Shown: piece by piece, positions 44,253 to 56,153 of the stretch
Layout: each line of letters opens with the position of its first letter
Position numbering within the stretch: position 1 is the first letter of the stretch
Assembly: GCA_018663505.1 (NCBI GenBank)
Contig: JABJQG010000059.1
Span: forward strand, 1 to 64,000
Direction of reading: 5' to 3'
Length of the DNA stretch: 64,000 nt
From: Pseudobdellovibrionaceae bacterium
Lineage (GTDB): Bacteria > Bdellovibrionota > Bdellovibrionia > Bdellovibrionales > UBA1609
Position numbers and translations under genes: made by a program
The notes under the pieces: generated by a model
The model's database searches: none
What the model saw: only the letters and a program-made list of their open reading frames with translations
What the model was told of the DNA's origin: nothing

Positions 44253-45821
44253 TTACAGGTTGGCTCTTTTTGCAGGATCATTGGTTATTACTTTAGGAGC
44301 AGAGTTAAGTTTTGGCAATTTATTTTGTTCAGTGGACATTTCATTCCATAATTTACTGTATTGCTTGCTATATGACATTAGGGCGCTTTTAACAGAGATC
44401 ATGTAGAAGTTCTCAAAATTTTTCTTAAATGCAACTTTTGTGAAGTTACCAGCTCCGGAGAACACTTTTGTAGGTACATAGTTTTCATCTATTTTTTTGC
44501 TAAAAACTATAAACTTGTTATGATGTAATAGCGGGAAAAAACGTCGCAAAGCCGGGGAGTAAGAGTTCCAATGATTTGTTTCCAGATATTTAATCTTCAT
44601 ACCTGCTTTTACTAATTTTTTTACATGTTTTGCTTCTAAATATAAGTTTGAACCTAGAGGCGTATTATTTCTACGGGAGTGTCCATAACGAGTGTCAATA
44701 TAATATAAGTCATCATCGGCCACCATATTAACAATTTTCCCTTTTTCTAATGCTTTATAAAGAGCATTAATCAAGTCAGTATTTGAGAACCTATGAGCTG
44801 CGATTTCAATTTTGTCACTATCTTCAATAGCCTTAACAATACTTTTCATTGCTAAAGAGCCTTCACCGGGGACAAAAAAACTTTTTATATCCTCAAGAGG
44901 CAAGGTCTCAATATGACGTCGGCATTCTTGAATATAGTTTATAAATTTATCTTTGCCAGCAGAACCTTTATGGATCATCCCTTTCATTAGACAAAGTTGA
45001 TTTTGAGTAAAATAATTTTTAGCAGGTGTTTCTATAAAATTCCAGTTTTCGTGGTGTAAAACTGTTCCAGAGGAGAGATTTCCACTGCTAAATGATACTT
45101 TTATTTGTTTTTTACTTTCTGGATTTACAATAAAAAGTTTGTTATGAGCTAAGCCAATTTTTTGCATTCTTCTATTATTTTTGAGGTTAAATGTTTTTCC
45201 TCTAAAGTATAATTTAGGTTGAGACTCAACAGGGTTATCTTTACCACAATCTAAGAGTCGCAAGGCATTTTTCACTTCCCTTTGAATACTAGGAATACTT
45301 TTGATCCACTGATAGGAGGATTGAGGATCTGTAGAGTACTGTATGGCTTGTTCCAGAAGACTTCTTTCTTCTTCTGTAAAATCCACAATTTCTTTAGCTT
45401 TAGTATCTTCATATAGGGGATTATCAATAATAAAAGTAACTTTTACATTTTTTTTGATAGCGCTACAGAGTTCTTTAGCAACAGATCTGTTAGAAAAGGA
45501 GAGGTAAGTAAAAAACAGTTCCTTAGTTTCTTCTTCTTTAATCCATTCAATGAGTTTATTCTGTGGACTAGAGATTCTTTTGGCAGATGCACTTTCATCA
45601 AAAGCCGTACAAAATACATTTTTCGGCTTCTGCTCTAGTTTTGTACTATCTATGGAGTATATTTGTTTATAGCTGGTGTATTCATAATCATTGCAAACAG
45701 GATTTGTAAATAGAACCTCAAAGCTCATATCATCATCAAGAAAGCTTGTACCCGCATAAATGCTAGTGTTCCAAGCCAGTGTGATTAAAATCAATAACGC
45801 CGAATAATTCCTAATTTTCAT
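44253..45821 (-). CDS. Exported phospholipase D-like protein with two degenerate HKD motifs
   Basis: 522 residues from ATG 45821, chosen for GGGGGGA just upstream and a clean signal peptide (MKIRNYSALLILITLAWNTS). Two PLD-like halves: HNKLFIVNPESKK...SSGNLSSG and LLHHNKFIVFSKK...FSGAGNFTK. Both keep His and Lys, but the Asp of HxKx4D is Asn and Ser. The following Ser/Asn-rich GNxxxG elements are intact. Could be an exported nuclease or lipase, or a non-catalytic binder. Monocistronic; the 45971-46121 palindrome lies upstream. Confidence 0.78.
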   Translation of the reverse strand: MKIRNYSALLILITLAWNTSIYAGTSFLDDDMSFEVLFTNPVCNDYEYTSYKQIYSIDSTKLEQKPKNVFCTAFDESASAKRISSPQNKLIEWIKEEETKELFFTYLSFSNRSVAKELCSAIKKNVKVTFIIDNPLYEDTKAKEIVDFTEEERSLLEQAIQYSTDPQSSYQWIKSIPSIQREVKNALRLLDCGKDNPVESQPKLYFRGKTFNLKNNRRMQKIGLAHNKLFIVNPESKKQIKVSFSSGNLSSGTVLHHENWNFIETPAKNYFTQNQLCLMKGMIHKGSAGKDKFINYIQECRRHIETLPLEDIKSFFVPGEGSLAMKSIVKAIEDSDKIEIAAHRFSNTDLINALYKALEKGKIVNMVADDDLYYIDTRYGHSRRNNTPLGSNLYLEAKHVKKLVKAGMKIKYLETNHWNSYSPALRRFFPLLHHNKFIVFSKKIDENYVPTKVFSGAGNFTKVAFKKNFENFYMISVKSALMSYSKQYSKLWNEMSTEQNKLPKLNSAPKVITNDPAKRANL

Positions 45822-45970
45822 AAAATCCCCCCAGATTTTCACTCATTTCAAGCGATGCAGTAGTATTATCTGAAAGATGAATAGAAGGCAAATATCAAAT
45901 TTTTCAAAATATGGGTTATTCTGTCAAGAATCCTAAGGGCAGCTAACTATCTGATATTATGTTCATGTGT

Positions 45971-47143: not shown

Positions 47144-48586
47144 TTATGAGCAGTGAAATATATGAAAGCTTGGTGTTGAATGTTCCGATCCTTGATGGTC
47201 AACATTGAACAAGGCGATAATTTCGGTTTTTACATTAGCATGTAAGTTAAATATCACCTGATCAGCCCCTTCAATAATTTGATGCAGGCCTCTGCCAGCA
47301 CCCCCCTTGTGTTTTCCATCGTTGAGATTAGCATCTTCACTATAGCAGTTGATAAGATAATTGGAGACAATTTCTGCGGAGAGAGCTCCAAAAGGGTCGG
47401 CAACGGAGACGGCAGCTAGAATTCCATCACATGCATAACTTATTGTGGGGCGCTGTTCTCTTTTTAAATGCACACCATCTCTTCGATTAATATGGTTAAA
47501 TATTGGTTTCCCATCACTGTCATGTGGGGCGTCATAGATGGCATTCATTAGGAGTTCTTCTGTAACAGTACTAATTCTGCTAACATTTGAACTTCGCACG
47601 CCCACTTTTGTGAAATAGGCAAGAAGTCGTTCTCTATGTGTGTGTCGAACCTCGCTACCACTGACTTTGTGACTGCGTACATCAATCCCATGAGTTAAGT
47701 ATTTATGAACACCAAAAAACTCTAAAGTGGATAGTTTGTTAAAGGTGGATGTGAAATTTTGAATTGTGAGTTTTTTATCTAAATCATTTCTAGACATAAT
47801 ATGAAAGCGGCTATCAATAACTTTAATTTTTTCAATGTAGTCTTTGATTGCACCGTTCGTCATAACAACTGTATTCCAACTATTTTCAATACTGTTAAGT
47901 TGATCTAAGAAATCCAGCGAGACAAATACCACATCAATATTTTTACTTTGTAATATTTTTTTTGCAGAATCTAGGTCAAATGCTTGGTAAGTGTAAGCAC
48001 CACAGCTGCCAATAGCCATCTTAGCGATGTTTTGCTGTTTTTTAGATTCTTCAAAAATTAATACTCTAGTTTTTGTCATAACTTTCGATTGTAGTGACTG
48101 ATTTACTTTTTGTAGTTTATTTCTTGAGGTTTTTAGATCCAGAATAAGAGATTCAAAGTGTTTAGCCTTTTCATTGGTATTTTGTACTTTTACTGAAAGA
48201 ATATTTGCATAGATTTGGTATAAGTAAGAATTAATAAGTTTGTTTTTGCTGTTATTAAACTGTTCCACTTCCAGGTAGCATAAGGTCACATCAGTGCTAG
48301 AAATAATCGTTGCAGAACAGGTCTCCTTGCGAATAAGACTAATCTCACCAAGGAGTTCTCCTTCTGTATCAAGAGTGGCCACTTTTCCACGATCCACAAA
48401 AACCTCAACTGTTCCATCCATTAGAAAATAGAGTTTACTATTTTTTTGACCTTGCGAAAGGATCTCCGAATTCATGGGCATAGAAACAACTTTAACATGA
48501 CTTAAAATTATTTTAAGCGCACTTGCTGGCATAGTATTGAAGTAGCCTAGTTTACTAAATTTATGAATAGTCTCAGCAGTGTCCAT
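47144..48586 (-). CDS. cNMP-binding, receiver-like and HATPase regulator
   Basis: 480 residues from ATG 48586 (AAGG 5 bases before; ATG 48622 also possible). Cyclic-nucleotide-binding domain about 10-120 (LYFLMDGTVEVFVDRG, LLGEISLIRKETCSATII); coiled coil about 130-180; receiver-like fold about 175-290 without clear phospho-site; GHKL ATPase about 345-470 with EELLMNAIYDAPHD, VADPFG and KGGAGRGLHQIIEGA. The ATPase matches the protein at 24886-25824. Probably an anti-sigma or serine kinase controlled by second messenger. Divergent from the motor-like cluster starting at 48782 and may regulate it. Confidence 0.78.
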   Translation of the reverse strand: MDTAETIHKFSKLGYFNTMPASALKIILSHVKVVSMPMNSEILSQGQKNSKLYFLMDGTVEVFVDRGKVATLDTEGELLGEISLIRKETCSATIISSTDVTLCYLEVEQFNNSKNKLINSYLYQIYANILSVKVQNTNEKAKHFESLILDLKTSRNKLQKVNQSLQSKVMTKTRVLIFEESKKQQNIAKMAIGSCGAYTYQAFDLDSAKKILQSKNIDVVFVSLDFLDQLNSIENSWNTVVMTNGAIKDYIEKIKVIDSRFHIMSRNDLDKKLTIQNFTSTFNKLSTLEFFGVHKYLTHGIDVRSHKVSGSEVRHTHRERLLAYFTKVGVRSSNVSRISTVTEELLMNAIYDAPHDSDGKPIFNHINRRDGVHLKREQRPTISYACDGILAAVSVADPFGALSAEIVSNYLINCYSEDANLNDGKHKGGAGRGLHQIIEGADQVIFNLHANVKTEIIALFNVDHQGSEHSTPSFHIFHCS

Positions 48587-48781
48587 ATAAACCTTATTTA
48601 ATATACTCATTGTAATCGACATTAACTCTAAAATAATGAAGCAATGCGAAACAGCTCTTAGGACTAAGGGCTATTTGGAAATACCTAAGTCTAGCTTTTG
48701 CAATCTTATGTAGCAAAATTAAAATGCTTGGTGGGAACTTCCGAAAAACATTATAGAGAACTAAACATCGTAGGTGGATCA

Positions 48782-50302
48782 ATGAGTTTTAACTATGACA
48801 AAATTAAAGATAACCAAAGCGATGGGAACCAGTGGGCCTCCTATAGTGACCTTTTTATGGTCTTGTCATTTGTCTTTTTGTTATTATATGTGAGTACAAG
48901 TTTAAGAAATGGAACATCAAATATACAAAATCATGTTGAGTATCAACAATTAGCTCAAGAAAATGATGATCTTAAAGCACAATTGAGAACATATAATGCT
49001 TTAAAATCAAATTACCAAAAAGAAGGAGCGAGCAGTAAGGAGTTGAAAGATTATAAGCAACTTATGTCTCATCTAGACTTATTGCAAGAACAGGCTAGTA
49101 GTGAGAAGCAAGAATTAGAACTTAAAGCTCAGGAAAATGCAAAAAAAGAAAAAACTTTAAATCAATATCAGAAATTAATTAAAAATATTGTCGACTCGAA
49201 TATGGTGGCAAGGGCGAGAATTAAAAAACGAGACACCATTATTCAAGATAAAAATATTGTAATTAAATCAAAAAATAAATTAATTAAGGAAAACAAAGAA
49301 ACTATAAATGTTTCTAAAGCAAAAATAAAAACATTAAATACTACAATAATGCAGAAAAAGGTTTTGATAACTAAAAATCAAGATAAGTTAAAAGAAATTA
49401 AACAAAATCTTTCACAGAAAGTGGAATCATTAAACCAACAATATCAAGAACAAAAAGTTACCAGACTAGCTGCTCAAAAGGAAATCAGACGACTACAAAG
49501 AGATTCACAAAAAGAAATATCAACTTTAGAGAATCAAAATAAGCTTGTTGGGAAGCAACTGGATAAAATGAAAGTCAGAATGGTTGTTGCCAGTGAGAAA
49601 GTTGCTACAGCTAAAAGTGAAATTGATAAAATAAAAGAAGATAAACAGAAATTAGCACAAAAATTTCAAGAGTCAAAAAAAGAATCTGAACAGAAGATGG
49701 ATTCTCTAACGAAAGAGTATAAGAAATCTCTTTCAAAAGCTCAGGCCAATGAAAAAGCAAGACAGAAGCTAGCTAGAAAAATTCAAAAAAGCTTCAAAAA
49801 AGCTGGAGTTAAGTTAGATGTAAATAAAGCTACTGGGGATGTTGTTCTTACTTTTGGTAAAGAGTATTTTTCTACGGGACGTCATAATCTTAAAAAGAAT
49901 ATGAAAAAAATACTTAAAAAGTTTATCCCAATATATGCAAAGTCATTATTCAAAGATAAAGGGATTCGTAAGAAAATATCATCTGTAGAAATAATTGGTT
50001 TTGCGTCGCCTACATATAACGGAAAGTATATAGACCCCACAAGTCTAGACCCTAAAGATAGAGCGGCGATTAATTATAATTTAGATTTAAGTTATAAAAG
50101 AGCAAAATCAATTTTTAATTATATGTTTCATAATGATTCGTTGAAATATTCCTATCAAAAGACCTTACTATCTAAGGTAAAAGTAACTGGGAAAAGTTAC
50201 TTTTCAGAAAAAGCTAGGAATGTTGCCAGTGATAAGAGTTGTGCTACAAAAAATTGTAAAGAATCACAGAGAGTAATAATTAAATTCAATTTAAAAAGGT
50301 AA
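48782..50302 (+). CDS. MotB/ZorB-like stator protein with coiled coil and OmpA-like domain
   Basis: 506 residues from ATG 48782 with GGTGG just upstream. One N-terminal membrane helix, WASYSDLFMVLSFVFLLLYV, with Asp23 placed like the proton-carrying Asp of MotB. Residues about 55-350 are a long coiled coil (KLKEIKQNLSQKVESLNQQY). The C-terminus about 360-506 is OmpA/MotB-like: VVLTFGKEYFSTGRHNL, VEIIGFASP, YNLDLSYKRAKSIF (NxxLSxxRA peptidoglycan-binding motif). The coiled coil between membrane and wall is far longer than in MotB or ZorB. Next gene (MotA-like) starts 17 bases later. Ion-driven stator role is inferred from family. Confidence 0.8.
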   Translation: MSFNYDKIKDNQSDGNQWASYSDLFMVLSFVFLLLYVSTSLRNGTSNIQNHVEYQQLAQENDDLKAQLRTYNALKSNYQKEGASSKELKDYKQLMSHLDLLQEQASSEKQELELKAQENAKKEKTLNQYQKLIKNIVDSNMVARARIKKRDTIIQDKNIVIKSKNKLIKENKETINVSKAKIKTLNTTIMQKKVLITKNQDKLKEIKQNLSQKVESLNQQYQEQKVTRLAAQKEIRRLQRDSQKEISTLENQNKLVGKQLDKMKVRMVVASEKVATAKSEIDKIKEDKQKLAQKFQESKKESEQKMDSLTKEYKKSLSKAQANEKARQKLARKIQKSFKKAGVKLDVNKATGDVVLTFGKEYFSTGRHNLKKNMKKILKKFIPIYAKSLFKDKGIRKKISSVEIIGFASPTYNGKYIDPTSLDPKDRAAINYNLDLSYKRAKSIFNYMFHNDSLKYSYQKTLLSKVKVTGKSYFSEKARNVASDKSCATKNCKESQRVIIKFNLKR

Positions 50303-50318
50303 TTAATAGGAGCCAATA

Positions 50319-51260
50319 ATGACGTATCAAGAATTCATGAGAGAGTTAGTAAATAACCTGGTGTTGTTTGCAACAAGCTATCTAGTGCCTATTATGGCCA
50401 TTGTATTTGTAACTGGTGTTGTGTTACGAGTCCTGATCTATTATACGGTAAAAAGACAACAGTTTTTTGCTAAAGAGTTTGAAAAAAGGGTACATAATTT
50501 TATTGACGAGGGAGAGTATTTCGGTCCTATGTCCTTTTATGTGATTACTAAAAGGTTGCTAGAAAAAACCTATTATGAAATTTTTGAACTAAAAGGAATA
50601 ATGCGAAGGCGGAAACATGACTATGTTACTTCTTTAACTGACAGATTGTTCTTAATTCAGCATGGATCTGCATTTTTGGTGAGAGATTCATTAAAACAAA
50701 TTAAGTACATTAAGTACAACAACCACCAACCTAAGTTGTTAGAAATTGTAAAGAACGTCTTTCAAAACAACCCTTGTTTTAACCGAGTATTTGGTAAAAT
50801 TCCGGTGGGAGTGTTTAATGATTTTCTTAATGTTTTGCCGGGACTGTTTATAATAGCAGGAATATTTGGAACATTCTTAGGTATTATGAAAGGTCTACCA
50901 GAGTTAAAGGCGATGGACATTACAAATGTTGAGCTTACTAAAAATACAATGGACGCATTTTTAGAGCAGATTACATACTCAATGGCAACTTCAATTATTG
51001 GGATTGTATTTTCGGTTGCATTAACATTGCTTAATACTGCGTTTTCACCCGAAAAATTATTTATTGGAATTGTTGATAGATTTGAAAATTCTCTGGATTT
51101 ACTTTGGAATCGAAGTTTGGATAATGATATCCCTTCCAATGTCGCAGAGTTTGATGAACATAAAGACCCTGTGGATGCACTTGCGGAACAAGCAGTGTTA
51201 AAGGAAGTGGAGAATAAAAAATTGACATCTAAAGGAGTGGAGAATAAGCGAGTTTCTTAA
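50319..51260 (+). CDS. MotA/TolQ/ExbB-type (ZorA-like) proton-channel protein
   Basis: 313 residues. Three membrane helices: about 15-42 (YLVPIMAIVFVTGVVLRVLI), about 168-195 (VLPGLFIIAGIFGTFLGIMK) and about 215-245 (YSMATSIIGIVFSVALTLLN). LPG...GxxGTFLGI is the hallmark of the MotA/TolQ/ExbB/ZorA superfamily, most like ZorA by eye. Between TM1 and TM2 lies a cytosolic helical domain. The tail after TM3 is short (about 65 residues), unlike the long ZorA tail. RBS TAGGAG. Pairs with the MotB-like gene just before it; together they should form an ion-driven pump of five and two subunits by analogy. Confidence 0.8.
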   Translation: MTYQEFMRELVNNLVLFATSYLVPIMAIVFVTGVVLRVLIYYTVKRQQFFAKEFEKRVHNFIDEGEYFGPMSFYVITKRLLEKTYYEIFELKGIMRRRKHDYVTSLTDRLFLIQHGSAFLVRDSLKQIKYIKYNNHQPKLLEIVKNVFQNNPCFNRVFGKIPVGVFNDFLNVLPGLFIIAGIFGTFLGIMKGLPELKAMDITNVELTKNTMDAFLEQITYSMATSIIGIVFSVALTLLNTAFSPEKLFIGIVDRFENSLDLLWNRSLDNDIPSNVAEFDEHKDPVDALAEQAVLKEVENKKLTSKGVENKRVS

Positions 51261-51282
51261 GATTTGAAGTTAATTCTGTAGT

Positions 51283-51329
51283 TAAAAGCTGATTTTTTCA
51301 AATCGGCTTTTGCTGCATTTATAGCAAAA
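51283..51329 (+). promoter_or_regulatory. Two mutually exclusive hairpins before the FHA gene
   Basis: Hairpin A: AAAAGCTGATTT (51283-51294) pairs with AAATCGGCTTTT (51299-51310), one G-U pair, loop TTTC. Hairpin B: CTTTTGCT (51306-51313) pairs with AGCAAAAG (51322-51329). They share CTTTT and cannot form together. B ends 11 bases before the ATG and its arm covers the only purine-rich RBS candidate (AAGAGAA). Suggests attenuation or translational control. Confidence 0.45.
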
Positions 51330-51340
51330 GAGAATAGACG

Positions 51341-54300
51341 ATGAGTGATAGTATTGTACAAATTTTGATTAGCATTGACGGAAAGGAAGAAGTTCGTCAA
51401 TTTTCAAAATCTACAATATTGATAGGTAGAGATCCATCAAATGACTTCCCAACAGATATGAAGGGACTGAGTCGCAAGCATCTGCAAATAAAAATAAAAG
51501 AGAATAAAATATATATTGTTGATTTAGGCTCAACATTTGGTACAGGTTTAAGGGGTGTGAAAATCCCCACAAATCATGATATTGAGTATCGAAGTGGTGA
51601 ACCGATTTTAATTGGTAAAACTGGAGATTTTATTAACGTAAAATTGATACAAAAGTTATTACAGCCTGAAATTCCAAAAGATCTTCCTGCTAGAGAAATA
51701 ACTGGCATTACTATGACAGATCACAATGTTGACCTGCAAATTGAGAATGTCCCATCAGATAATGAACATAATGCGACATCCAATGATTCTAGTAGTAGTA
51801 ATGTTCATTCTCTTTCAAAAAGACGAGAGGCTTATTCCACGCGAGAAGCTTCGCAGGTTCGACGGTCACCCTCTAGTGAAAACCCATATGCATATAAAAT
51901 GAAACCTCAAAATAACGGCACTGCTATTGCAGAGAAATTAGACGCAATTCAAGAGGTGTTGTCACCTGTGGTCAATTCAGCAATAGGCAAAATCCAAGGA
52001 AAAATACAAGAATATAAAGATGATAAAGAAATCCAGGATTTTTTAGTTCAAAAAAGTGTGGAAGAGAAAGAATACTTAGAGTTAGTTTTAAAAAAAGAAG
52101 TGGTTGAAATTGAAATCGATGATTTAGTAATGAAAAGATCGGAAATCATTACTGACTTTAAATTCATTGCAAATGAAATAAAAAGTCAAAGAGAGCATAT
52201 AGGTAACTTAGAGGAACTTAACAATAAGTTAAATAAAAAGAACACAGCTTCTGAATCAAGTCTTAAGCAAGTACAACAGGATTTAATTACTATTGGCAAT
52301 AATTATCAAGAGAAAAAAAATGAATTAGATAACGTAACGGAGCAGTTGTCCTACTTTGAAAATAAAATTGGTAAAGACAAAGAAGCAAAAGAAGCAGAGT
52401 ATAAATTGTTAAAAAACCAAGTAAATGAATTAGAAAAAACATTAGGAGAAAATAAAAAACTACTGTTGTCAGAAGTTCAAAAGTTAGTAAACGATAAGGC
52501 AATAAATGCCTCAGAACTGACAAGGCTTAAAGATGAAATATCTGCAACTGAAGATCATATTTGGCGTCTGAAGGAAAATAAAAATACACTTAATAGTGAA
52601 ATTGATGAGGCTAGAACGCATAAGGATGAGGCTGTTAGTGCTTTAAATGAGCTACAAAGTTCACTGGTAGATTATAGAAAAAACTATGATGATGAATTAA
52701 GTATCTTAAAGGGAAAGGTAAAAGAAAAAGATATTGAACTAAGTAATATTGAGAGAAGCTTAAAAACTGTGACGTCTACACTGTCCAACGAAAAAAGCGA
52801 ATTAATATATGAAATAAATGAACTTCAAGCTGTTAAAAAAGATCATGAGCAACAGATTAAACAAAAAGCTGTCCAAATGGAAGTCGAGCAAATAAAATAC
52901 AATGATCTTGAAAATGATTTAAAAGATAAAATTTGGAAACTAGAGCAAAATCGAGATGACCATAAAATATCTCTACGTAAGCAGAAGGACATTCAGGATA
53001 AGCTAAAATTAGAAATTGATAAGCAAAAAGAAAATATTGATAAATTAAAGCTTTTAGAATCTGAATTAGAGCTTAAAGTTGAGTTATTGCACAAATCTAA
53101 AGATAACTTAAATGGTCAATTGGATACCATAAAGGCAGAAGAGAGCAAATGTTACGATAGCAAAGAAAAGCTTAGTAAGGACATTTTAGTATTAAATAAA
53201 GATGTTATGCAAGGCTTGGAAGAAAAGAAGAGTTTAGAAGAACGTCAAAAGAAGCTCGAAGATGAATATGTGATTGAAAGAATTGAGTTTGAAAAGTGTA
53301 AAGTTGATGTAATTGACACGCAAAATATTATTAATAAATTAAATGAAGAAAAAGAAGTTGTATTAACGAATAAGATAAAGCTAGAAGAAAATAATATTAA
53401 AGTCCTTAATGAACTTAATGATAATGAATTGAATATTAAAAGTAGTCACAAGCTGCTTAATAGTTTGAAAGATGATATTAGTCGTCGTAATAGTGAACTT
53501 AATAATCTGGATAATGAATATGAAAATATTTGTCTTAAAATAGATGAGGGGCAAGTAGGTCTTAAATCGGTTTCTGAGAAAATTATTAGTTCAGAAAAGT
53601 TAATTGAAGTGCAGATGAATGATGTTGCTGAACTTAATGCACAATTTTTGGAAATTGATGCAGCTCGTGAGGCCAGTGAAAAAACAGTAGCTTCTCTTGA
53701 AATAAAAATAAAGAAAAAGCAACATAAGTATTTAAATATCAGAAAAAGTTTTTTTAAAAAGTTGAAAAAAGTAAAGTTAAAAACTCAGCTAGAAATAAAA
53801 GAAAATAAAACACGAGAATATAATAGAATCGTAGATGAAGCTAATGTGCAAGCAAAAGCTATATTGCAACAGACAGATGAAGAGTGCAAATTAAAGCGCA
53901 TTAGTTTAAAACAAGAATTCGTTTCAAAAGAACAACTTTTGAATGAAAAAAATAAAGAAACAAATGAACACCTTGAGAATAAATATTCAGAACTTAGTCT
54001 AAATCTACAAAAATCAATCGCTGATTCAAAACGCCAAATGGATGCTAAACATCAAGAATTGGAATCGCAATTAAAAATTAAATTTGAGTTAAAAGAACAA
54101 AATTTAGTTACACAATTTGAAAATAAAGTTGAACAACAAAACTCTGAATATATACTTTTGATGAAGGAAGCCAATCAACAAGCCGCAGATCTTATAGGGA
54201 AAACTAATGAGGACACTGCAAGACTTAAGGAAAAGGCATTTGATGAGGCCCAAACACACCTAAAAGAACAAATAAATGAACGAGAGCTAGTTTTAGAGAA

Positions 54301-55354
54301 TCTCGTTAAGCAAAATGAAGAACTTGAAATTGAAAATAAGAATCTTCTTGAAGATGTGCAAAAAGAAGTTCAACAATCAAAAGTTAGTGCTGAAATATAT
54401 GCCGAAAAATTGATTGCTGATGCTCAAAAAGAAGCACAGAAAAGCAGAGATAGTATTGATGCAGAAATTGCAGAATTAAGAAAAAATAGTGAATTAGCTT
54501 TGTCGGAAAGAACATTAATTGAAACTAAAAAGTTAGAAAATGTATTAAGTGATATCCAGGTCAAGCATGATAAAGAAAAAAAGTTTATTGTGGAATCAGT
54601 ATTACGAAATATTGATGTACAAATGGCTTTGCCTGGTTATAGCCCAGGAAACCTACGCGATACCGTTGAAGCTGTTTTAACATCTGAGTTGCTTAATGAA
54701 GAGACTGAATATAAACAGAATATAATGTTTAGTTCTGATGAACTAACACAAAAAAAAGAGAAGGAGTACTTGCTGCGGGTTGTGATTAAATATGCTGTGT
54801 TAGCAGCTGTTATCATTTTTATATTTATTAATATTTCAAAAATTGAATACTATTTTTCAGAAATCAAACAAAAGTTAATTGCTGATAATAAAGTAGATCG
54901 CGAAAAATTAAAAGTTAATATTAAGAAGCAAGTGAATGACCTTTATTTTAAACCACTAAAAACTAAAGGCCTGAAGGCAGGGTATCTTGAAAATGTGTTA
55001 TATACGGAAGGTTATATAGAAACTTACTTTGATCCAGAGGTGCAAAATAAATGGGTGAGTCAGGTGAGTAATTTATTTGTTGACAGCCTATCATTAGATG
55101 ATGATTTAGTGATAGATGTTATATCTAGTGAATCTGTTTTTATTAAAAATACCCTAAAGAGCAGTAACAAATTACTTAAAAAATCCAAGCTGAAGATGAT
55201 CAACTCCCTGCGGGAGAAAGAGGATATTTTTAATAATAAAATTAAACAACAACTTAGAAAAAAATCAAATTATAAAAAGTTTATTAAACTACGACATGAC
55301 TTTATGACGAGTGAACTAATTAAATATGGAGATGAAAAAAATGAAAACAATTAA
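51341..55354 (+). CDS. Giant FHA-domain coiled-coil membrane protein
   Basis: 1337 residues. FHA domain 1-105 with ILIGRDPSNDF, GLSRKHLQI and VDLGSTFGT, which bind phosphothreonine. Low-complexity Ser/Asn linker about 130-190. Near-continuous coiled coil about 225-1100 (for example ELEKTLGENKKLLLSEVQKL), rich in Lys/Glu/Asn. One membrane helix about 1147-1166 (YAVLAAVIIFIFINISKIEY), then about 170 residues. With the FHA domain cytosolic, the tail would be periplasmic. The coiled coil could span some 100 nm. It follows the MotA-like gene by 80 bases and overlaps the next gene. A scaffold linking phospho-signals to the motor is inferred. Confidence 0.82.
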   Translation: MSDSIVQILISIDGKEEVRQFSKSTILIGRDPSNDFPTDMKGLSRKHLQIKIKENKIYIVDLGSTFGTGLRGVKIPTNHDIEYRSGEPILIGKTGDFINVKLIQKLLQPEIPKDLPAREITGITMTDHNVDLQIENVPSDNEHNATSNDSSSSNVHSLSKRREAYSTREASQVRRSPSSENPYAYKMKPQNNGTAIAEKLDAIQEVLSPVVNSAIGKIQGKIQEYKDDKEIQDFLVQKSVEEKEYLELVLKKEVVEIEIDDLVMKRSEIITDFKFIANEIKSQREHIGNLEELNNKLNKKNTASESSLKQVQQDLITIGNNYQEKKNELDNVTEQLSYFENKIGKDKEAKEAEYKLLKNQVNELEKTLGENKKLLLSEVQKLVNDKAINASELTRLKDEISATEDHIWRLKENKNTLNSEIDEARTHKDEAVSALNELQSSLVDYRKNYDDELSILKGKVKEKDIELSNIERSLKTVTSTLSNEKSELIYEINELQAVKKDHEQQIKQKAVQMEVEQIKYNDLENDLKDKIWKLEQNRDDHKISLRKQKDIQDKLKLEIDKQKENIDKLKLLESELELKVELLHKSKDNLNGQLDTIKAEESKCYDSKEKLSKDILVLNKDVMQGLEEKKSLEERQKKLEDEYVIERIEFEKCKVDVIDTQNIINKLNEEKEVVLTNKIKLEENNIKVLNELNDNELNIKSSHKLLNSLKDDISRRNSELNNLDNEYENICLKIDEGQVGLKSVSEKIISSEKLIEVQMNDVAELNAQFLEIDAAREASEKTVASLEIKIKKKQHKYLNIRKSFFKKLKKVKLKTQLEIKENKTREYNRIVDEANVQAKAILQQTDEECKLKRISLKQEFVSKEQLLNEKNKETNEHLENKYSELSLNLQKSIADSKRQMDAKHQELESQLKIKFELKEQNLVTQFENKVEQQNSEYILLMKEANQQAADLIGKTNEDTARLKEKAFDEAQTHLKEQINERELVLENLVKQNEELEIENKNLLEDVQKEVQQSKVSAEIYAEKLIADAQKEAQKSRDSIDAEIAELRKNSELALSERTLIETKKLENVLSDIQVKHDKEKKFIVESVLRNIDVQMALPGYSPGNLRDTVEAVLTSELLNEETEYKQNIMFSSDELTQKKEKEYLLRVVIKYAVLAAVIIFIFINISKIEYYFSEIKQKLIADNKVDREKLKVNIKKQVNDLYFKPLKTKGLKAGYLENVLYTEGYIETYFDPEVQNKWVSQVSNLFVDSLSLDDDLVIDVISSESVFIKNTLKSSNKLLKKSKLKMINSLREKEDIFNNKIKQQLRKKSNYKKFIKLRHDFMTSELIKYGDEKNENN

Positions 55355-56153
55355 GCTATTAGTATTTTTAATTATGCTATTTCAAATGGACACAATTAAT
55401 GCTGATTCGAAAAAAATTAAATACTGTGAAACTTCAAAAGAGTTTATTATTACAATGGAGTTTTTAAAAGATAATAATAAGGTTTTTGATAACAAGGTTA
55501 AAGTTATTGATTTAGCTAAAAATGTAGCTTCAGGTTGTGATGGAGCTGCAAAAAGATTTATTGAAACATATCTCATGATGTCGAAGGTTGGCTTTCCCAC
55601 ACATAAAGCAGTAAAGTATGGAGTCAAACTATCACACTTATCCAATGATCATAAAGATACTTTTCAGACATTATTTAAAATGGGCTATTTAAAGAAATAT
55701 TTAGATTTTGACCTGTTTCACTCTTTGAAAATGACTGATAATCTGATGCTAGCACATAATGGTAACATAAAAATTGCGAAAAAGGATTTTTCTAATTTTG
55801 TACAGTTTTGTGTTGGAACAAAGCACATGGATTTACCGAGAAAGCAATGCGCAAATTTTTCAACAAAAATGGCCTTGATGAGTGCTAAATATAAAAAAGA
55901 AATATTCTCTGAATTTAAGGAGTTGTTTGAATTCTTAACTCAAAATAATATGGGACCAAAATTGACTACTAATAAAGCTTTTCAAGAGGCTCAAAGTATT
56001 CTTTCAGAAAGTCCTATTGCAGGGTCTAATTTTATGGCTGTATACAAATATAGTCAGTCAAAAAATGGCCTTAAATTAGGTGTAAATGAAGCCATTAAAA
56101 CGGCTAAGAGTATGAGCTTTGCCTCTCGAAAAATTGCCTCAGAGCCCAAATAA
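55341..56153 (+). CDS. Secreted protein of unknown function in motor-like cluster
   Basis: 270 residues from ATG 55341 (GGAG eight bases upstream; ATG 55326 in frame has none). Signal peptide MKTIKLLVFLIMLFQMDTINA. Mature part is helical and basic with four cysteines (IKYCETS, ASGCDGA, VQFCVGT, RKQCANF), possibly two disulfides. No family recognised. Overlaps the FHA gene by 14 bases, so it is co-translated and probably a periplasmic part of the same system. Confidence 0.65.
   Translation: MKTIKLLVFLIMLFQMDTINADSKKIKYCETSKEFIITMEFLKDNNKVFDNKVKVIDLAKNVASGCDGAAKRFIETYLMMSKVGFPTHKAVKYGVKLSHLSNDHKDTFQTLFKMGYLKKYLDFDLFHSLKMTDNLMLAHNGNIKIAKKDFSNFVQFCVGTKHMDLPRKQCANFSTKMALMSAKYKKEIFSEFKELFEFLTQNNMGPKLTTNKAFQEAQSILSESPIAGSNFMAVYKYSQSKNGLKLGVNEAIKTAKSMSFASRKIASEPK

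What the first reader, a model, noticed from the sequence alone, without database searches (positions are those of the whole stretch)
48782..56153. Motor-like cluster: MotB/OmpA, ZorA/TolQ channel, giant FHA coiled coil, secreted protein
A stator-type pair (Asp23 in the B helix; GTFLGI in the A channel; NxxLSxxRA wall-binding motif) is co-directional and nearly contiguous with a 1337-residue FHA protein with about 870 residues of coiled coil and a C-terminal membrane helix, and a 270-residue periplasmic protein. ZorA normally carries the long cytosolic tail itself; here the A subunit has a short tail and a separate FHA rod could replace it, while the B subunit has a 300-residue coiled coil that could reach far into the periplasm. 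No ZorC, ZorD or ZorE, flagellar, Tol or Ton genes are adjacent. This is a candidate undescribed ion-driven machine gated by phosphothreonine signalling: defence, motility, envelope or prey-contact function are all possible.
Basis: partly seen in the sequence, partly recalled or inferred. Interest (0 to 1): 0.82.

Follow-up and report, generated by a model that had tools for sequence, protein, structure and literature searches.

The report
Signal-linked ZorAB-like motor of bacterial predators
A three-gene set found across the predatory-bacteria phylum, including the model predator Bdellovibrio bacteriovorus, encodes an undescribed ion-driven membrane motor related to the Zorya phage-defence motor but paired with a giant signal-reading rod protein, so a well-studied predator appears to own a machine whose job nobody has examined.

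Summary
B (48782-50302), A (50319-51260) and F (51341-55354) form a conserved operon across Bdellovibrionota. A is in 170 of 340 genomes searched (129 strongly), the F C-terminal domain in 117, and both in 113 (Fisher 1.7e-66; shared ancestry inflates this). The motor-type Asp of B is conserved in 82 of 83 intact relatives. A and B are closest to ZorA/ZorB by sequence, and A also by predicted fold, but score far below curated Zorya cut-offs. A lacks the ZorA tail, and no ZorC/D/E recurs in about 90 neighbourhoods. The fourth gene (secreted protein) is not part of the set. A sister clade pairs the same motor type with a cyclic-nucleotide-binding protein in all 12 loci mapped. The module is in B. 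bacteriovorus HD100, but absent from two invasive predators (B. reynosensis, H. marinus) and two epibiotic ones, and it persists in two genomes without flagellin. I read it as a signal-linked, peptidoglycan-anchored 5:2 motor. Its cellular role is open; predation-essential, flagellar and Zorya-type defence roles are disfavoured.

The parts
48782..50302 (+). B subunit (506 aa): short cytoplasmic N-terminus, one TM helix with Asp23, about 290-residue coiled coil, C-terminal OmpA-like domain with NxxLSxxR and an invariant Cys pair (C487, C492)
   Evidence: alignment of 13; ZorB1 6.6e-30
50319..51260 (+). A subunit (313 aa): 3-TM ZorA/TolQ/ExbB-type channel subunit that ends about 50-75 residues after its third membrane helix; no long ZorA-type tail
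   Evidence: ZorA chains best in PDB by profile; predicted fold closest to ZorA
51341..55354 (+). F protein (1337 aa): FHA domain (about 20-95), coiled-coil rod (about 205-1130), TM helix (1147-1165), conserved periplasmic helical domain (about 1200-1327) with a YxxNVLYT motif
   Evidence: confident helical model; no PDB fold match
54698..55318 (+). Segment of F used as profile A3: TM helix plus the conserved C-terminal domain; marker of the module across the phylum
55341..56153 (+). Secreted protein (270 aa, signal peptide) overlapping the end of F; probably co-transcribed here but not part of the conserved module

Best explanation
B, A and F encode one trans-envelope machine. A and B form a 5:2 ion-driven motor of the ZorAB type: five A subunits surround two B helices, ions pass A's Ser/Thr ring and B Asp23, and B's long periplasmic coiled coil ends in an OmpA-like peptidoglycan-binding head. 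F takes the place of the long ZorA tail as a separate protein. Its periplasmic domain and membrane helix sit beside the motor, and its coiled coil carries an FHA domain deep into the cytoplasm, where it reads a phosphothreonine mark. The machine would thus couple wall or envelope state to cytoplasmic signalling: a phospho-signal switches the motor, or wall strain relayed through B changes F. A sister clade uses a small cyclic-nucleotide-binding protein in the same gene position, so signal-coupling looks like the common theme. Shown here: gene set, homology, topology, conservation, co-occurrence. Inferred from ZorAB/MotAB: stoichiometry, ion flow, wall binding. Guessed: F contacts A5B2, direction of signalling, cellular role (own-envelope mechanics, possibly in the free-living phase).
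For: Three-gene order kept with median gaps of 12 and 18 bp. A and F C-terminal domain co-occur: 113 genomes with both, 16 strong A only, 4 F only, 207 neither; 105 of the 106 closest A genomes have F. F is retained but unlinked in one complete genome (G060: A at 2.11 Mb, F at 1.20 Mb) and on other contigs in several drafts. A's profile finds ZorA chains in the PDB; its predicted fold is closest to ZorA, then TolQ and ExbB. B hits ZorB1 at 6.6e-30. Asp kept in 82 of 83. FHA positions G-R, S-R-x-H and S-x-x-G kept in 14-16 of 16. Positive-inside charge puts the F C-terminus in the periplasm. Sister clade with a cyclic-nucleotide-binding partner in 12 of 12 loci, clade support 100/99. Hanks kinases present in all 10 genomes checked. 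Broad, mostly lineage-wide distribution.
Against: No experiment and no complex prediction shows that F touches A or B. The Fisher value counts related genomes as independent. Sixteen genomes have strong A/B without F, so the motor can exist without it. F proteins of a Bacteriovorax-like group have no detectable FHA. The canonical OmpA GHTD is GFASP here, so wall binding is less certain. A straight 290-residue coiled coil is about 43 nm, longer than a usual periplasm, so B must fold back or tilt. The A model is only moderately confident (mean pLDDT 78) and its Foldseek E-values are modest.
Confidence: 0.6

Rival explanations
1. It is an accessory engine for surface gliding, an analogue of Agl/Glt, in which the FHA protein GltG binds the TolQ-like AglR and links the motor to the gliding machinery.
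For: B. bacteriovorus glides and the FHA protein GltG of Myxococcus interacts with AglR (PMC3169522): a precedent for a motor plus FHA membrane protein. Both GltG and F have FHA in the cytoplasm, one TM helix and a periplasmic C-terminus.
Against: AglQ and AglS are short ExbD/TolR proteins, and GltG ends in a TonB_C domain; F gives no TonB_C hit. No further gene family recurs near about 90 loci. Other MotA_ExbB motors are present in the same genomes (8 in G000, 9 in HD100), which leaves room for separate Agl motors.
Confidence: 0.15
2. It is an anti-phage system, a Zorya variant in which F replaces the ZorA tail and recruits effectors by phosphothreonine.
For: Closest known relatives of both A and B are ZorA and ZorB.
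Against: No ZorC, ZorD or ZorE nearby and no recurrent effector candidate. Scores are far below curated Zorya cut-offs (37 against 100 or more for A, 32 against 400 for B). Present in most Bdellovibrio species and spread through the phylum rather than patchy.
Confidence: 0.1
3. It is a predation machine needed for entering or holding prey.
For: Present in named invasive Bdellovibrio (HD100, Tiberius, KM01, NC01, ZAP7, SKB1291214, W), absent from both epibiotic species, B. exovorus JSS and B. qaytius. Bd1167, probably in this operon, is down-regulated after prey entry (PMC2797640).
Against: Absent from two complete genomes of invasive predators, B. reynosensis LBG001 (G049) and Halobacteriovorax marinus SJ (G147). 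Several genomes in the genus of the epibiotic species (g32) do have it.
Confidence: 0.1
4. It is a flagellar stator variant or regulator.
For: Shares the MotB-like Asp helix and an OmpA-like head.
Against: Two genomes without any flagellin hit (G015, G022) keep A and F, while many flagellated genomes lack them. A has 3, not 4, TM segments.
Confidence: 0.03

Closest known systems
Zorya ZorAB motor (types I and II)
   Same: Homologous A (3-TM, GTFLGI-type TM2, closest predicted fold) and B (Asp in the single TM helix, OmpA-like head); both subunits hit Zor models best.
   Different: A has no long cytoplasmic tail; B has a coiled coil of about 260 residues or more; a separate FHA rod; no ZorC/D/E; lineage-wide distribution; scores far below Zorya cut-offs.
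Agl-Glt gliding motor of Myxococcus (AglRQS with GltG)
   Same: TolQ-like channel together with an FHA, single-TM protein that reaches the periplasm.
   Different: Agl uses two short TolR-like B subunits; GltG ends in TonB_C; F ends in a different helical domain; no Glt gene family recurs nearby.
MotAB flagellar stator
   Same: Asp-bearing B helix and OmpA-like wall-binding head.
   Different: A has 3 TM segments; long coiled coil instead of plug and linker; independent of flagella.
TolQR / ExbBD
   Same: 3-TM channel fold (Foldseek hits just behind ZorA).
   Different: B carries coiled coil plus OmpA head instead of a TolR/ExbD domain; no TolA/TonB partner; no NCBIfam TolQ or ExbB hit.

Membership tests
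Zorya defence system | A and B homologous to ZorA and ZorB | tested here: met
   PADLOC ZorB1 6.6e-30, ZorA1 6.4e-9; PDB profile hits and Foldseek best hits are ZorA
Zorya defence system | Score above curated ZorA/ZorB cut-offs | tested here: not met
   best ZorA model 37.2 bits against cut-off 100; ZorB2 32.1 against 400
Zorya defence system | Long cytoplasmic tail on ZorA | tested here: not met
   A ends about 50-75 residues after its third membrane helix
Zorya defence system | ZorC and ZorD, or ZorE, in the locus | tested here: not met
   none among window neighbours; no recurrent partner other than F in about 90 loci; the rest of the genome was not searched
Zorya defence system | Anti-phage activity | not testable with these tools
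   needs phage assays
5:2 ion-driven motors (MotAB/TolQR/ExbBD/ZorAB superfamily) | Conserved Asp in the B transmembrane helix | tested here: met
   82 of 83 relatives with intact N-terminus
5:2 ion-driven motors (MotAB/TolQR/ExbBD/ZorAB superfamily) | Channel-subunit fold of A | tested here: met
   three TM segments; Foldseek best hits ZorA, TolQ, ExbB; model only moderately confident
5:2 ion-driven motors (MotAB/TolQR/ExbBD/ZorAB superfamily) | 5:2 stoichiometry and ion flux | not testable with these tools
   single-chain prediction only
Agl-Glt gliding machinery | GltG-type FHA protein with TonB_C end | tested here: not met
   F gives FHA but no TonB_C in Pfam; its C-terminus has no credible PDB sequence or fold relative
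Agl-Glt gliding machinery | Linked glt genes (GltC/D/E) | tested here: not met
   no recurrent neighbour families
Flagellar stator MotAB | Dependence on flagella | tested here: not met
   module kept in flagellin-less G015 and G022
FHA-domain proteins | FHA domain with pThr-contact residues (G-R, S-R-x-H) | tested here: met
   Pfam 7.1e-13; residues kept in 14-16 of 16; not detectable in some F proteins of other families

The most novel reading that the evidence does not exclude
A new class of signal-gated envelope motor: one ZorAB-like engine that evolution has fitted with interchangeable cytoplasmic readers, an FHA rod for phosphothreonine in one clade and a cyclic-nucleotide-binding protein in another, so that kinases or second messengers switch force across the cell wall of predatory bacteria.
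Probability: 0.35. Interest if true: 0.85.

Novelty: new variant of a known kind. Interest (0 to 1): 0.68.

Why it matters
Ion-driven 5:2 motors are a small set of known machines. This is a conserved, apparently undescribed member of that superfamily, sitting in the chromosome of the model predator B. bacteriovorus HD100, with a partner protein whose periplasmic domain has no known relative. It bears on how ZorAB came to serve defence, since relatives here have no effectors and no long tail, and on how motors can be coupled to kinase or cyclic-nucleotide signalling. It is directly testable in HD100 with clean deletions and an Asp mutant.

Tried and rejected
Four-gene unit: rejected, since the secreted protein's relatives are never beside the motor in other genomes. 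Requirement for periplasmic predation: the absence in both epibiotic species looked promising, but B. reynosensis LBG001 and H. marinus SJ also lack the module. Flagellar role: rejected. Length covariation of the B coil and the F rod as a sign of contact: none (Spearman 0.13, p = 0.30). F paralogs in genus g39 as part of a second motor: rejected, their neighbours are glycosyltransferases. Known relative of the F C-terminal domain: none in Pfam, PDB sequences or Foldseek against PDB. Recurrent extra neighbour genes: none of weight. Ser/Thr kinases as a discriminating partner: present in all 10 genomes tested, with and without the module. Literature: no paper found on this operon; the Tn-seq tables of PMC6561027 are in supplements that could not be opened.
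Full report
What is there. The window holds, on the + strand, B (48782-50302, 506 aa), A (50319-51260, 313 aa), F (51341-55354, 1337 aa) and a secreted protein (55341-56153, 270 aa from its likely start). B has one membrane helix with Asp23 in WASYSDLF, a coiled coil of about 290 residues and an OmpA-like end (Pfam OmpA only E 0.008; PADLOC ZorB1 6.6e-30). A has three hydrophobic segments and is missed by the Pfam MotA_ExbB cut-off (E 0.07), whereas eight other motors in the same genome pass it.

Conservation. A is in 21 of 39 other relatives, 87 of 141 genomes of the order and 170 of 340 genomes of the phylum (129 strongly). Organism titles of the GTDB scan place nearly all of the 80 best hits in Bdellovibrionota, a few being misbinned or loosely named genomes. 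In the loci examined, B-A-F follow one another with median gaps of 12 and 18 bp. The Asp is kept in 82 of 83 B proteins with an intact start, NxxLSxxR and a C-terminal Cys pair in 88 of 88.

F as a dedicated partner. A profile of the F membrane helix plus C-terminal domain (A3) was searched through the same genomes. Of 340 genomes, 113 have both strong A and F, 16 have strong A only, 4 have F only and 207 have neither (Fisher 1.7e-66). Relatedness inflates this, but F stays present when it has moved away from A: in the complete genome G060 the two lie 0.9 Mb apart. The 16 without F are mostly one clade plus a few long branches. AlphaFold2 gives the C-terminal domain a confident helical model (pLDDT 95-98 over about residues 81-207 of the segment). 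Foldseek finds no PDB match at E <= 0.001, nor does a profile search of PDB sequences find a credible relative. Charge bias puts this domain in the periplasm. The rod length varies widely (FHA-to-domain distance 14-1066 residues), while both ends are conserved. F proteins in four loci (L054, L078, L112, L121) and the one in L098 have no detectable FHA, so the periplasmic end, not FHA, is the constant part.

Nearest known family. By profile, A finds ZorA chains in the PDB (2e-7 to 2e-5) and only ZorA models among NCBIfam motor families. Its predicted fold is closest to ZorA, then TolQ and ExbB. B finds ZorB. Scores are far below Zorya cut-offs. ZorA's tail is needed for Zorya function (PMC11890865); A has none. 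ZorC/D/E are absent from the neighbourhood. So it is a relative of ZorAB, not a Zorya system. A 2025 survey of MotAB relatives treats ZorAB as a remote homolog and left it out of its trees (PMC12505986); nothing found in the literature describes the present set.

A sister clade. Weak A matches in families f17 and f18 are paralogs in B'-A' operons. Their third gene encodes a 146-164-residue cyclic-nucleotide-binding-domain protein: Pfam-confirmed in five, and by a profile built from those five in all 12 loci that belong to the clade; these A proteins form one clade (100/99). FHA readers and cyclic-nucleotide readers therefore occupy the same place beside one kind of motor.

Who has it. The identification by length is inference, though a tight one. 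G031 (B. exovorus JSS) and G082 (B. qaytius), both epibiotic, lack them. But G049 (B. reynosensis LBG001) and G147 (H. marinus SJ), invasive predators with complete genomes, also lack A, so the module is not needed for invasion. G015 and G022 have no flagellin hit and keep it. In HD100, Bd1176 is an L,D-transpeptidase, and a YkuD gene lies at 1,117,317-1,118,879. Counting back, Bd1167, described as a coiled-coil protein down-regulated after prey entry (PMC2797640), is probably B or F of this operon. This tag assignment is inference.

Mechanism. The most economical reading is an A5B2 motor anchored to the wall through B, with F as a detached equivalent of the ZorA tail that carries a signal reader. 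Gene set, topology, homology and co-occurrence are shown; stoichiometry, ion flow and wall binding are inferred from ZorAB and MotAB; F contact, direction of signal flow and cellular role are not shown. One unresolved point is the length of the B coil: 259 residues at the shortest, about 38 nm if straight, longer than a usual periplasm.

Noticed in passing
L151, L152, L159-L162, L185-L188, L190, L191: Sister operons B'-A'-CNB: a ZorAB-like motor followed by a small cyclic-nucleotide-binding-domain protein, with B' up to 1057 aa. Not described in any paper found.
   Followed up: partly
window 47144-48622 (-): Protein of 492 aa with a cyclic-nucleotide-binding domain, divergent from B; one relative sits in the same place in L028. 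With the CNB sister operons this may not be chance.
   Followed up: no
L149 6900-8528, L150 5386-6975: Short FHA proteins (about 530-540 aa) with the same periplasmic domain as F, next to GT9 and GT22 glycosyltransferases, in genus g39; two genomes of that genus have such an F but no motor A.
   Followed up: partly
L181 6443-8902: A-type sequence lies in an 819-residue open frame overlapping a B-type frame; possibly a fusion or frameshift.
   Followed up: no
L042, L043, L183, L172-L176: Clade of B-A pairs without F (families f10 and f17).
   Followed up: partly
window 44253-45842 (-): Probable secreted phospholipase D-like protein (weak DrmC hit).
   Followed up: no
window 55341-56153: Secreted 270-residue protein family with no Pfam hit, found in 21 of 59 relatives at unlinked sites; function unknown.
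   Followed up: partly
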